Both the position numbers and the translations under genes were made by a program. DNA of 33,025 nt, from positions 1 through 33,025 of the forward strand of contig JAKAKG010000020.1 in assembly GCA_021813555.1 (NCBI GenBank), in the 5' to 3' direction. This stretch comes from Acidobacteriota bacterium (GTDB lineage: Bacteria > Acidobacteriota > UBA4820 > DSQY01). Positions 21,734 through 28,887 of this stretch are shown here, piece after piece; the first letter of the stretch is position 1, and the number at the start of each line of letters is the position of its first letter. The notes under the pieces are model-generated. The model was not told where the DNA came from. It searched no databases and worked only from the letters and a program-made list of their open reading frames with translations.

Positions 21734-21801
21734 GGGAGCGGGGAGCGGGGAGCGGGGAGAGGTCAACACAATCCGCTCCCGGCTACCTGCTCGCTGCTCC
21801 C
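21734..21801. repeat. Heptamer array and imperfect hairpin between TolC-like and adaptor genes
   Basis: Three perfect GGGAGCG units (21734-21754) plus a variant form one 26-base arm (21734-21759). The other arm is 21776-21801, starting CTCCCGGCTACCTGCT. 21 of 26 positions pair. The same 16 bases CTCCCGGCTACCTGCT recur at 23465-23480 on the other side of the tolC-like gene. Confidence 0.7.
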
Positions 21802-21807
21802 GGTTCC

Positions 21808-23175
21808 TCACTTCCCCATCGCCCACGCAAGGCGCGCGCGTTCTACGATCTCGTCATGGATGGCCTGGGCCCGGGTCAGCGACGCGCTGGTGAGGGCCAT
21901 GTCCGCGTCCAGCAGGTCCGTGATCGTAGCGAGCCCCTCGTTGTACCGGAGGGCCACGATGCGCTGGTTCTCCCTCGCCTGGGCCTCGGAATCCGTGGTC
22001 ACGGCTACCCGCTCCGCGGCGGATTTGGCGCGCAGCCACGCGGCCTTGGCTTCCACCCGGGCCTTCTGCTGGAGGTCCAGGAGGGCCTGCTGGGCCTGCA
22101 ACTGCTGGGCGCGGGCCGTTTCCACACGGCCGGCGCGGGCCCCGCCGTCAAAGATCGGAATTTTGACCTGGACGCCGAGCATCCAATTGTCACCCCACGC
22201 CGCTTTCGTCCAGCGCTGGGTGTCCTGCTCGTAGGCGGCCATGACGCCCACCTGCGGCCAGTAGTCGGCCCGGGACATCTTGACCCCCTGCTCCGCCTGC
22301 TGGGTTTGCAGGGCCATGGCCTTGAGGTCTCCCCGTCCCTCCAGGGCGGCTTTCTCGGCCTCATCGAGGGGAGGCAGAGCCGCCGCCGGCGGCGCGAAGT
22401 CTCCCTTCGGGTCCACGTCCTGCTCCGTGCCCATGGCGTACCCCAGATAGGCGCGGGCCACCTGGGCATCGGCGGCCCTGGCCGAGGCCTGCTGGGCCAT
22501 GTCGGCGGCGAAGACCCGGATGCGGAGGAGGTCGGAATCCAGCACGAGGCCCTGCTTGTACATGGCCTCCACCTGCTTCTGGTGGGCCTGCGCGGTCTTC
22601 ACGGCCTCCTGCATGACGCCCGCCGCCTGCTTGGCCAGGAGGCTCCCGTAGAAGGCTTCGGTGACGCCCTTCACCACGCTCGCCTCGGCGAAGTCTCCCT
22701 TGCTGCGGGCCGCGTCGATGCCGAGCTTGGTGGCCCTGTAGGCCGCCGTCAGCTTGCCGCCCGTGAACAGGGGGAAGGTCACCTCCACGCGGGACTGGAA
22801 GTTGGTGAGCGGCTCGGGATTGTTGAGGCTCGGGATGTAAAAGTCCTGCATGCCGAAATTGGCCTGCGTGAGCTTGCCCATGAACACGTAGACGGGATTG
22901 TTGGTGCGGCTGTAGTTTTCCGAGAAGGACAGGTTGGGGAGGAAGTACGACCGGGCCTCCTTGAACTGGCCCTCCTTGGCCTGGACGTCGGCCCGGGCCG
23001 CCTGGAGGAGGGCGTTGTTGGCCTTGGCCCGCGAAAGGGCCTCGTCGAGCGTCACGGTGACGGCCGGACCGAGGGCTGGGGCCGGGTCCGGGGCGGGGAC
23101 CTGCGCTGCCGCGTTCAGTCCACCGAAGGCCAGCGCCAGCGCCGCGGCCCACAAGACGGTTTTGGTTCCGTTCAT
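21808..23175 (-). CDS. TolC-family outer-membrane efflux protein (second system)
   Basis: Outer-membrane channel component, 455 residues. A cleavable signal peptide (about 1-24, ending AAAQ) lacks a lipobox Cys, in contrast to the lipoprotein channel of the first pump. Two TolC repeats follow, with FSENYSRTNNPVYVFMGKLTQANFG and VTFPLFTGGKLTAAYRATKLG in the first and MAAYEQDTQRW, VQVKIPIFDGGARAGRVETARAQ and ALRYNEGLATITDLLDADMAL in the second. These are classic positions for outer-membrane factors. Start ATG 23175 follows AAGGGGGAA. It is the first gene of the second pump operon, 98 bases before the adaptor. Confidence 0.93.
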   Translation of the reverse strand: MNGTKTVLWAAALALAFGGLNAAAQVPAPDPAPALGPAVTVTLDEALSRAKANNALLQAARADVQAKEGQFKEARSYFLPNLSFSENYSRTNNPVYVFMGKLTQANFGMQDFYIPSLNNPEPLTNFQSRVEVTFPLFTGGKLTAAYRATKLGIDAARSKGDFAEASVVKGVTEAFYGSLLAKQAAGVMQEAVKTAQAHQKQVEAMYKQGLVLDSDLLRIRVFAADMAQQASARAADAQVARAYLGYAMGTEQDVDPKGDFAPPAAALPPLDEAEKAALEGRGDLKAMALQTQQAEQGVKMSRADYWPQVGVMAAYEQDTQRWTKAAWGDNWMLGVQVKIPIFDGGARAGRVETARAQQLQAQQALLDLQQKARVEAKAAWLRAKSAAERVAVTTDSEAQARENQRIVALRYNEGLATITDLLDADMALTSASLTRAQAIHDEIVERARLAWAMGK

Positions 23176-23214
23176 GGTTCCCCCTTAAAGCATCATGGCG
23201 GTTTCACTTGATCC

Positions 23215-27072: not shown

Positions 27073-28823
27073 GATTCCATCTCCTTGGCCCGCCTGGCGA
27101 CCTGCTCATATCGAGCCTGAAGGTCTTGCCGGGTGGGACGCTCGGGGGCATAGCGGGCTGTCTCGATGTCCTCCCGAAGGTCCAGAACGCCCGTCACGTC
27201 CTCCTCCTTCATCCCCGAGGCGGCCAAGGCCTCCTGGAGCTGTCCGCGGCTCAGGCCCCCCGTGGCGCGCGCCGTGAGCAGATCCAGGGATGCGGTGAGG
27301 GCAGAACTGAGGGCGTCGTGGAACGCGTCGGCCTTGCGCACGTCCATAGAGCGCCGTGCGTGGTGGAGGCCGCGCCGCGCCTGGCGGGCGAGAGCCCGCG
27401 CCCGCGCCTTCTCGGGGGCCAGAAGGAAGGTCTTGTAGAGAGCCGAGCCCGCGCCCAGCAGGAGGTTCACCGCGAAAGGCAGGGCCAGCAGGGTCCAGAA
27501 GAGGCTCGGAGCCATGGGCCGTTTGGGAGCGGGGCCCGGGCGAGGGGAGCGGATGAGGGGGGCCAAGCTCGCCTCTCCCTGGGGTGAAGCCGCCTGTCCC
27601 GTCACCAGAACCTTTCCGCCGCCCGCCTCCAGGGTTTCGTAGGCCCGGGCTTGTGGGTCGAAATACACCAGGCGCACGGGAGGGAGGAGGGCGTCCCCGG
27701 CTAGCTTGGGCAGGATGGGGAGCCGCACGGTTCTGTGTGTCTGGTAGGTTCCTCCGCTGAACGCGCTCTCGTCCTCGGTCGTGGCCGGATAGGGAGAGAA
27801 GAAGGGCGAGGACGTCCGCTCCAGGGGGTCTTCCGGGAGGAAGCCCGCTCCTTCGATACGGAGACGGAGGGAAAAGGGCTGGCCCATGTCGGCCTTGGCG
27901 GGCGGCGGGGTGATGCTCGCCAGGCGGAAGATTCCCACGGCCCCTTTGAAGCCCGGCGGCGGCGGAGGCAACGGAAGAACGTCCAGGGAGGCCTGGCCTC
28001 CCGTCACGGTCACGCGCTGAGGGCCACCGGTACCTGAGGGTTCGAGGCGCAGCTCTGCGGTGAAGGGACCCACCTCCAGCCGTCCCGTGCGGAGCGGGAA
28101 GAGGGCCGCGCGCTTCACGACCACGTCCAGATAGACTCGCCCTTCCCGGTTGGCTTGCCGCGTGGGGCTCCCCGTGGCGTTCGGATCCTCCACCCGCTGA
28201 AAGCCTGAAAAGTCAGGGGATTGGACCAGGTCCAGGCCGCGCACGGACCGCCTCGTGAGGAGGTGAAGGGCGTAGATGACGGGCTGGCCCTGGTACACGC
28301 GGGAGGCGGAGAGGGAGCCCGACAGGAGAAGGTCCGAGCCCGCCTTTGGCAGGGGCTGCGCCTCGCCGGGAGGTCGCCCTTGGGGACGCCCGGGGGCCGT
28401 CTCCACGTCCGCCGAGAAGCCCGTCACGGGATAAGTCTCCCCCCCGATGCGGAGGTCGAAGTTGGGCACCGACAGATGGCCCGCTTCCGTGGGAGTGAGG
28501 AGGTAATGATAAGCGAGGGCCATGCCCGAGGGGGTAGACTCGGGTGTCATGTACTGTCCCACGCTCTTGAACCCCGGGAGAGGCGGGAGGGCCGGTTGAG
28601 GGATGGCCGACTTGGCGCCGGAGATGACCAGGGTGAAGGTGAGGTTTTCGCCGATGCGAAGGCTCGTCCGGTCCGTCCGCGTGGAGACGCGAAGGTCCTG
28701 TGCCAACGCGGTGAGGGTAAGGGCGGCCATGGAGAGGGCCAAGAGGACAAGCCTCCCGCCCCTCAAACGAGACGCGAGGTGTGAAGAGGTAGACACGAGC
28801 AAGCCATCACGTGATGATGCCAT
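27069..28823 (-). CDS. batD: BatD-like oxygen-tolerance protein
   Basis: Periplasmic, membrane-anchored protein, 584 residues from ATG 28823. A hydrophobic signal (about 25-42, ending ALAQD) is followed by beta-rich domains typical of BatD: VSTRTDRTSLRIGENLTFTLVISG, then LPGFKSVGQY, YHYLLTPTEAGHLSVPNFDLRIGG, and later LRIEGAGFLPEDP. A C-terminal transmembrane helix lies near FWTLLALPFAVNLLLGAGSAL, with a charged cytoplasmic tail. The start is uncertain: GTG 28904 overlaps the smc stop but would place the AATTCGG array in the coding region (WGIRNSEFGIRK); ATG 28823 has GAAGGA 11 bases upstream and gives a more natural signal peptide. It is linked to batE by a 4-base overlap. Confidence 0.82.
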   Translation of the reverse strand: MASSRDGLLVSTSSHLASRLRGGRLVLLALSMAALTLTALAQDLRVSTRTDRTSLRIGENLTFTLVISGAKSAIPQPALPPLPGFKSVGQYMTPESTPSGMALAYHYLLTPTEAGHLSVPNFDLRIGGETYPVTGFSADVETAPGRPQGRPPGEAQPLPKAGSDLLLSGSLSASRVYQGQPVIYALHLLTRRSVRGLDLVQSPDFSGFQRVEDPNATGSPTRQANREGRVYLDVVVKRAALFPLRTGRLEVGPFTAELRLEPSGTGGPQRVTVTGGQASLDVLPLPPPPPGFKGAVGIFRLASITPPPAKADMGQPFSLRLRIEGAGFLPEDPLERTSSPFFSPYPATTEDESAFSGGTYQTHRTVRLPILPKLAGDALLPPVRLVYFDPQARAYETLEAGGGKVLVTGQAASPQGEASLAPLIRSPRPGPAPKRPMAPSLFWTLLALPFAVNLLLGAGSALYKTFLLAPEKARARALARQARRGLHHARRSMDVRKADAFHDALSSALTASLDLLTARATGGLSRGQLQEALAASGMKEEDVTGVLDLREDIETARYAPERPTRQDLQARYEQVARRAKEMES

Positions 28824-28859
28824 CCGAGAGGAAGTCCTTCGCAATTCGCAAGTCCCCTT

Positions 28860-28887
28860 CCGAATTCCGAATTCCGAATTCCGAATT
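28860..28887. repeat. Heptamer tandem array, CCGAATT type, between smc and batD
   Basis: Four perfect CCGAATT units lie head to tail (28860-28887), 13 bases before the smc stop. They create overlapping GAATTC palindromes. In G+C-rich DNA this A+T-rich array stands out. Confidence 0.88.

What the first reader, a model, noticed from the sequence alone, without database searches (positions are those of the whole stretch)
21734..28887. Five different 7-base tandem arrays at gene junctions
GGGAGCG (21734), CGGAAAG (23300), CCTGCTC type (23474), CTCCTCA (24977) and CCGAATT (28860) all repeat with period 7, all at or next to gene ends. A shared period with different sequences suggests one generating process, as with the short tandem heptamers described in some cyanobacteria. 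The left half of the window has no such array outside the chrA insert.
Basis: seen in the sequence. Interest (0 to 1): 0.6.

Follow-up and report, generated by a model that had tools for sequence, protein, structure and literature searches.

The report
Paired short-repeat hairpins at gene ends
The spaces between genes in this bacterium hold hundreds of short stretches built from 7- or 8-letter repeats, often facing each other in pairs just behind gene stop codons like the two arms of a hairpin; the kind is known from Xanthomonas and cyanobacteria, but here many different repeat words obey one rule and sometimes both arms change their word together.

Summary
All five period-7 arrays exist. In an unbiased 468-kb sample of the genome, exact tandem runs occur almost only at periods 7 (21) and 8 (13), with none in shuffled DNA; about 80% or more are intergenic although 86% of DNA is coding. 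About 30 heptamer and 15 octamer words are involved. They share a grammar: the purine/G-rich strand leads away from the nearest gene boundary (107/131), beginning a median 4.5 bp after stop codons, and is often answered by an inverted C-rich array (order G-then-C 42, C-then-G 2). Words without GGG obey it too, so G-quadruplexes cannot be the general reason. The same polarity holds in cyanobacteria. Against a sister species, array-bearing spacers evolve far faster than others, often by whole units; at six loci both arms had switched to another word together. I read them as slippage-grown arms of post-stop stem-loops; what these do (perhaps two-way 3'-end elements) is inferred, not shown. Architecture and polarity were published for GGGAATC repeats in Xanthomonas (Rehm 2015). 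New here: many words under one rule, octamers, concerted replacement of arms. New variant of a known kind.

The parts
21734..21759 (+). GGGGAGC array, 3.7 units, left edge of the spacer between the membrane-fusion and TolC-type genes
   Evidence: TRF 100% match
21773..21803 (-). inverted degenerate GGGAGCA/GGTAGCA partner array, directly behind the stop of the TolC-type gene (21808-23175, minus strand); pairs with 21734-21759
   Evidence: hairpin -42 kcal/mol, z -2.4; both arms also present in G001 and G002
23300..23330 (+). GGAAAGC array, 4.4 units, left side of the spacer 23176-23471
23457..23519 (-). GGGAGCA array, 9 units, over the 3' end and stop codon of the pseudouridine synthase gene; 21 bp (three units) shorter in sister species G001
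24977..25004 (-). GGAGTGA array, 4 units, sense, about 8 nt behind the stop of the gene 25013-26284
28858..28889 (-). GGAATTC array, 4.6 units, sense, about 11 nt behind the stop of the SMC gene (28901-32443); units heterogeneous in G001
17302..17325 (+). degenerate octamer arm (GTGAGGCG/ATGAGACG), distal arm of the hairpin behind the RND pump gene
17352..17374 (-). degenerate octamer arm (GCGGTGAG), proximal arm, about 8 nt behind the RND stop at 17382; hairpin -38.8 kcal/mol, z -3.55

Best explanation
The arrays are arms of intergenic stem-loop modules that sit directly behind stop codons. Each arm is a tandem array of a 7- or 8-nt word whose purine/G-rich strand points out of the gene; an inverted C-rich array often follows, so that stop - (GGRRNNN)n - spacer - (complement)n can fold in the transcript, and between convergent genes one module can serve both 3' ends. 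Shown by sequence comparison: period 7/8, intergenic place, anchoring on stops, polarity, inverted order, length changes by whole units at many loci, faster evolution than array-free spacers. Supported but weaker: pairing of the arms is kept (own arms match better than shuffled arms in two species; at six loci both arms changed word together). Inferred, not shown: arrays grow, shrink and homogenise by slipped-strand replication, and the module acts as a two-way 3'-end or transcription-ending/insulating element that can take the place of a classical hairpin-plus-T-run terminator.
For: Period 7/8 only; 62/74 period-7 and 23/29 period-8 arrays intergenic in a genome sample that is 86% coding; outward polarity 107/131, p=1e-13, also 51/63 in arrays without GGG tracts and 46/57 in arrays free of stop triplets; G-then-C order 42 to 2 and G arrays starting a median 4.5 bp after the stop; density convergent > tandem > divergent spacers, 3.4/1.5/0.87 per kb; own-arm match above permuted arms in G000, 10 of 5000, and in G001, 10 of 10000; concerted switching of both arms at six loci; two window junctions fold at -42 and -38.8 kcal/mol, z -2.4 and -3.6; unit-step length changes; 0 of 67 stops with a G array have a classical terminator against 17 of 234 without, p=0.016; same polarity and order in cyanobacteria.
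Against: Folding energies of array-bearing spacers as a class are only slightly better than shuffled (mean z -0.7 to -0.8 against -0.5 without arrays); many spacers carry one array only or two unlike words that cannot pair well; own-versus-cross pairing is not significant over the second batch of 40 loci, and without the switched loci the G001 pairing signal is weak (269 of 10000); classical terminators are rare here in any case; no transcript data; some modules lie inside what looks like one operon (the TolC-fusion-RND cluster), where ending transcription would be odd.
Confidence: 0.55

Rival explanations
1. Neutral slippage only: heptamers and octamers expand wherever there is no coding constraint, because of the length of DNA that the replicative polymerase holds, and the arrays do nothing.
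For: Unit-step length changes and homogenised units; fast turnover of array-bearing spacers; Rehm 2015 cites Mrazek 2007 for the polymerase-footprint idea.
Against: Does not explain outward polarity, the G-then-C order 42 to 2 or the anchoring on stops, nor matched switching of both arms.
Confidence: 0.25
2. Mobile or exchanged cassettes: array-spacer-array units are replaced as wholes, by recombination with other strains or by a miniature element whose ends are the arrays.
For: At loci 5, 6, 20, 35 and 61 (G000 versus G001) and locus 2 (versus G002) both arms and the spacer between them are replaced while flanking genes remain alignable and mostly 90% or more alike.
Against: The spacers of four switched loci tested (2, 5, 6, 20) do not recur at any other place in 1.6 Mb of held DNA of these genomes, unlike a MITE or REP family; most loci keep their word and change mainly in copy number.
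Confidence: 0.15
3. G-quadruplex elements, as proposed for GGGAATC repeats in Xanthomonas and Nostoc: the G-rich strand folds into a quadruplex next to the gene end.
For: About half of the intergenic arrays have at least three GGG tracts (68 of 131); quadruplexes were shown in vitro for related repeats (PMC4692102).
Against: Arrays without GGG tracts (GGAATTC, GAAGAGT, GAGAGTT, GAAAAGT, GAGACGC) show the same polarity, 51/63, and lie in the same positions.
Confidence: 0.05

Closest known systems
GGGAATC / GGGGAYT heptamer repeats of Xanthomonas and Nostoc (Rehm et al. 2015, PMC4692102)
   Same: Period 7, intergenic, dispersed, G-rich strand leaving the nearer gene, close to its 5' neighbour, rare between divergent genes, convergent inverted pairs in Xanthomonas.
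   Different: There one word family per genome and a quadruplex reading; here dozens of words including non-G-rich ones, octamers too, fast rather than stable spacers, and arms that switch word together.
Cyanobacterial STRR heptanucleotides (Calothrix, Nostoc; cited in PMC4692102, otherwise from own knowledge)
   Same: Several tandem heptamer words in one genome, mostly between genes; the word GGGAGCA and the polarity are shared with Moorena and Nostoc loci.
   Different: Period 8 is hardly used there (384 heptamer to 18 octamer arrays); the organism here is not a cyanobacterium as far as could be tested.
TAACTGA direct repeats of Beggiatoaceae, cyanobacteria and Bacteroidetes (MacGregor 2015, PMC4679880)
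   Same: Many dispersed intergenic heptamer repeats with a patchy distribution over phyla.
   Different: There one word, mostly just upstream of start codons; here many words, anchored on stop codons and paired.
REP/BIME elements and bidirectional intrinsic terminators
   Same: Intergenic inverted repeats behind stop codons, able to serve both strands.
   Different: No fixed palindromic sequence; arms are built from 7/8-nt units; no T-run behind the hairpin.

Membership tests
Rehm 2015 G-rich heptamer class | Dispersed period-7 tandem repeats, mostly intergenic | tested here: met
   62 of 74 period-7 arrays intergenic
Rehm 2015 G-rich heptamer class | G-rich strand leaves the nearest ORF (sense behind a stop, antisense before a start), short distance to the 5' neighbour | tested here: met
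   107/131 outward, median near distance 21 bp, far 135 bp
Rehm 2015 G-rich heptamer class | Convergent inverted pairs, under-represented between divergent genes | tested here: met
   order G-C 42 against C-G 2; 0.87 arrays/kb in divergent spacers against 3.4 in convergent
Rehm 2015 G-rich heptamer class | Unit GGGNATC or GGGGAYT | tested here: not met
   dozens of other words; GGGNATC and GGGGAYT are not among the arrays listed
Rehm 2015 G-rich heptamer class | Quadruplex-forming G tracts | tested here: not met
   63 of 131 arrays have fewer than three GGG tracts and follow the same rule; folding in vitro was not testable here
Rehm 2015 G-rich heptamer class | Repeat loci more stable than control loci | tested here: not met
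   array-bearing spacers median identity 0.82 against 0.965; 10/15 against 1/25 with length change above 6 bp
Cyanobacterial STRR | Tandem heptanucleotides between genes, several words per genome | tested here: met
Cyanobacterial STRR | The published STRR words | tested here: not met
   the published words (CCCCAGT type) are recalled from memory, and an octamer GGGGACTA is the nearest word here
TAACTGA repeats (Beggiatoaceae) | Word TAACTGA just upstream of start codons | tested here: not met
   word absent from the list of arrays; arrays hug stop codons
REP / MITE elements | One recurring palindromic or terminal sequence with a recurring body | tested here: not met
   spacers of four switched loci do not recur in 1.6 Mb of held DNA
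Intrinsic terminators | GC hairpin followed by a T-run | tested here: not met
   0 of 67 stops with a G array
Phase-variation contingency repeats | Repeat inside an ORF or promoter so that copy number switches expression | tested here: inconclusive
   arrays mostly behind stops and rare in divergent spacers; expression was not testable

The most novel reading that the evidence does not exclude
Bacteria of several phyla carry one general class of gene-end module, defined not by sequence but by grammar: two inverted arrays of any purine-led 7- or 8-nt word, anchored on the stop codon. The two arms are rewritten together, by fold-back copying of one arm into the other or by swap of the whole module, so structure is kept while sequence is free.
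Probability: 0.3. Interest if true: 0.75.

Novelty: new variant of a known kind. Interest (0 to 1): 0.5.

Why it matters
Why heptamers are over-represented between bacterial genes has had no tested explanation, and the main published reading rests on G-quadruplexes. Here one genome offers many words, about half without quadruplex-type G tracts, under one rule of polarity, order and anchoring on stop codons. That separates the rule from the sequence, and makes function (transcript ends) and origin (slippage, fold-back copying or module swap) testable with comparative data and simple reporters.

Tried and rejected
MITE/REP idea: spacers of switched loci do not recur. G-quadruplex as general cause: polarity is equal in arrays without GGG tracts. 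Strong thermodynamic signal for hairpins as a class: not found. A vocabulary shared with cyanobacteria: GGGAGCA is shared but was the bait; only a few other words overlap, so no claim is made. Organism name from 16S: none found in the assembly; an SMC comparison was uninformative; RpoB is nearest to the four Acidobacteriota genomes among 16 named ones, but with low identity and some split matches, so this is tentative. A first RpoB request failed on a wrong frame. Pairs chosen from the G001 sample numbered only five, so that batch was not pursued.

Full report
OBSERVATION. The window is contig C50 of a 3.3-Mb draft genome in 235 contigs; I call it G000. In the 468 kb chosen by number, exact tandem runs with at least 14 matched positions beyond the first unit are nearly confined to period 7 (21 runs), period 8 (13 runs) and their multiples; shuffled sequence has none at any period. 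The word GGGAGCA alone, three units with up to three mismatches, has 339 places in the genome against one for the reversed pattern.

WORDS. One search lists about 30 heptamer words (GGGAGCA/G, GGAGTGA, GAAGAGT, GGAATTC, GAGACGC, GAGAGTT, GGGATTT, GGGTTAA, GGCAATA and others) and about 15 octamers (GGGGACTA, GGGATGCC, GGAGATGA and others). Read on their purine-rich strand most begin with G or GG followed by purines. Both other genomes of the genus have 80-100 GGGAGCA places, but the sampled genomes of other genera of the family have 0 or 1. Samples of those other genera still show period 7/8 arrays with other words and a similar layout, so the words appear to turn over while the layout stays.

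PLACE AND POLARITY. With a codon-usage gene caller written for this purpose, 86% of the sample is coding, yet 62 of 74 period-7 and 23 of 29 period-8 arrays are intergenic; period 12, 15 and 18 arrays are mostly coding, as expected. The purine/G-rich strand points away from the nearer gene boundary in 107 of 131 arrays, about equally for starts and stops. A more sensitive detector finds G arrays starting a median 4.5 bp behind stop codons and, within one spacer, the order G-then-C in 42 neighbouring pairs and C-then-G in 2. Convergent spacers are richest, divergent ones poorest. The rule holds for arrays without GGG tracts, 51/63, and for arrays without stop triplets on either strand, 46/57, which guards against a bias of the gene caller. 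The window arrays fit: at 21734 G-left with a C-rich partner at 21773-21803; at 23300 G-left and 23457 C-right in one spacer; at 24977 and 28858 about 8-11 nt behind stops in sense.

PAIRING. Arms of the same spacer match better than arms drawn from different spacers, in G000 (10 of 5000 permutations as good) and in sister species G001 (10 of 10000). Two window junctions fold into long hairpins behind stop codons: TolC-type gene, -42 kcal/mol, z -2.4; RND gene, -38.8 kcal/mol, z -3.55. As a class, however, array-bearing spacers fold only slightly better than shuffled sequence, and many modules have a single arm or unlike arms. Pairing is therefore a tendency, not a law.

COMPARISON WITH SISTER SPECIES. 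G001 is 94% identical over the window's right half. At 23475 it lacks exactly 21 bp, three units and also seven codons; at 28858 its units differ from one another where the window repeats one of them. Across about 60 orthologous spacers, differences of 7, 14, 21 and 28 bp are common at heptamer loci, and 16 and 72 bp occur at two octamer loci, but other lengths occur too. Spacers with arrays have a median identity of 0.82 and 10 of 15 differ by more than 6 bp in length; spacers without have 0.965 and 1 of 25. At six loci both arms and the spacer between them are replaced, and the new arms match each other: GGGAGCA to GAGACGC/GCGATTA (locus 5, L017), GGAATTC to GGGATTT (locus 6, L018), GGGATTT to GGAAAGC/GGAATTC (locus 20, L056; a third word pair in G002), GGGATTT/GGGAGCA to an ATGG-type word (locus 2 in G002), GGGAGCA to GGTGAGTA/GGTGATGA (locus 35, L027) and GAGACGC to GGTGATGA/GGAGATGA (locus 61, L054). 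At these loci own arms beat cross-species arms by 10 to 20 score points. For the five of them read in G001, own-arm scores lie in the top 1-7% of chance pairs. A seventh locus diverged in both arms, the window's own 28858 spacer, does not show it. Over the whole second batch of loci the effect is not significant. G000 loci of the first batch were chosen for having two arms; their G001 and G002 counterparts were not.

OTHER PHYLA. In 82 cyanobacterial loci, 384 arrays have period 7 and 18 period 8; polarity is outward in 176/264 and G-then-C outnumbers C-then-G 51 to 10; in 35 other loci outward 27/35. These loci were fetched with one bait word, so they show the grammar, not its frequency.

WHAT IS KNOWN. 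Rehm et al. 2015 (PMC4692102) describe GGGNATC repeats in Xanthomonas with the same outward polarity and with convergent pairs, propose quadruplexes, report that no regulatory role could be identified, and cite polymerase slippage for the 7-bp step. MacGregor 2015 (PMC4679880) describes TAACTGA repeats. Heptamer VNTRs, GGGAATC among them, are used for strain typing in Xanthomonas (PMC6459536). I found no paper in the held library describing many words under one rule, octamers within it, or concerted change of arms; most subscription papers are not in that library.

MECHANISM. Shown: period, place, polarity, order, whole-unit changes at many loci, fast turnover. Inferred: slipped-strand replication as the generator. 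Inferred and less certain: a two-way 3'-end or transcription-ending role. A purine-first, pyrimidine-last module looks the same to a transcript from either side, which would explain why polarity does not depend on gene direction. Stops with a G array never carry a hairpin-plus-T-run terminator by my detector (0/67 against 17/234), which fits substitution, but such terminators are rare here. The TolC-fusion-RND cluster has modules behind TolC and behind RND, so some may set stability or dosage inside an operon rather than end transcription.

VERDICT. The concerted switching of arms is the part worth following.

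Noticed in passing
window 10403-16298: About 5.9 kb (deoxyhypusine-synthase-like gene, NRDD-like ORF, SNF2-type helicase) is absent at the matching place in sister species G001, where only about 50 bp separate the flanks.
   Followed up: partly
window 12096-13130: The NRDD-like ORF (anaerobic ribonucleotide reductase with ATP cone) matches only positions 2-181 of the 562-position profile, so it looks truncated or broken.
   Followed up: no
window 7723-7792: Octamers GGGAGGAA and, inverted, CCCCTCCT lie inside the chromate transporter gene (7125-8360): the same pair layout, but coding.
   Followed up: no
window 23472-23519: The GGGAGCA array encodes the last codons and the stop of the pseudouridine synthase; the 21-bp difference from G001 is both three heptamers and seven codons, so it stays in frame.
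   Followed up: partly
L291-L308: Exact (GGGAGCA)4 occurs in 18 IMG/VR viral contigs; whether these are phage-borne arrays or host flanks was not checked.
   Followed up: no
L284 about 1415-1456 (G002:C183): The spacer of the replaced module at locus 20 in G002 contains GGCGGTTCAAATCCGCC, which resembles the T-arm end of a tRNA gene.
   Followed up: no
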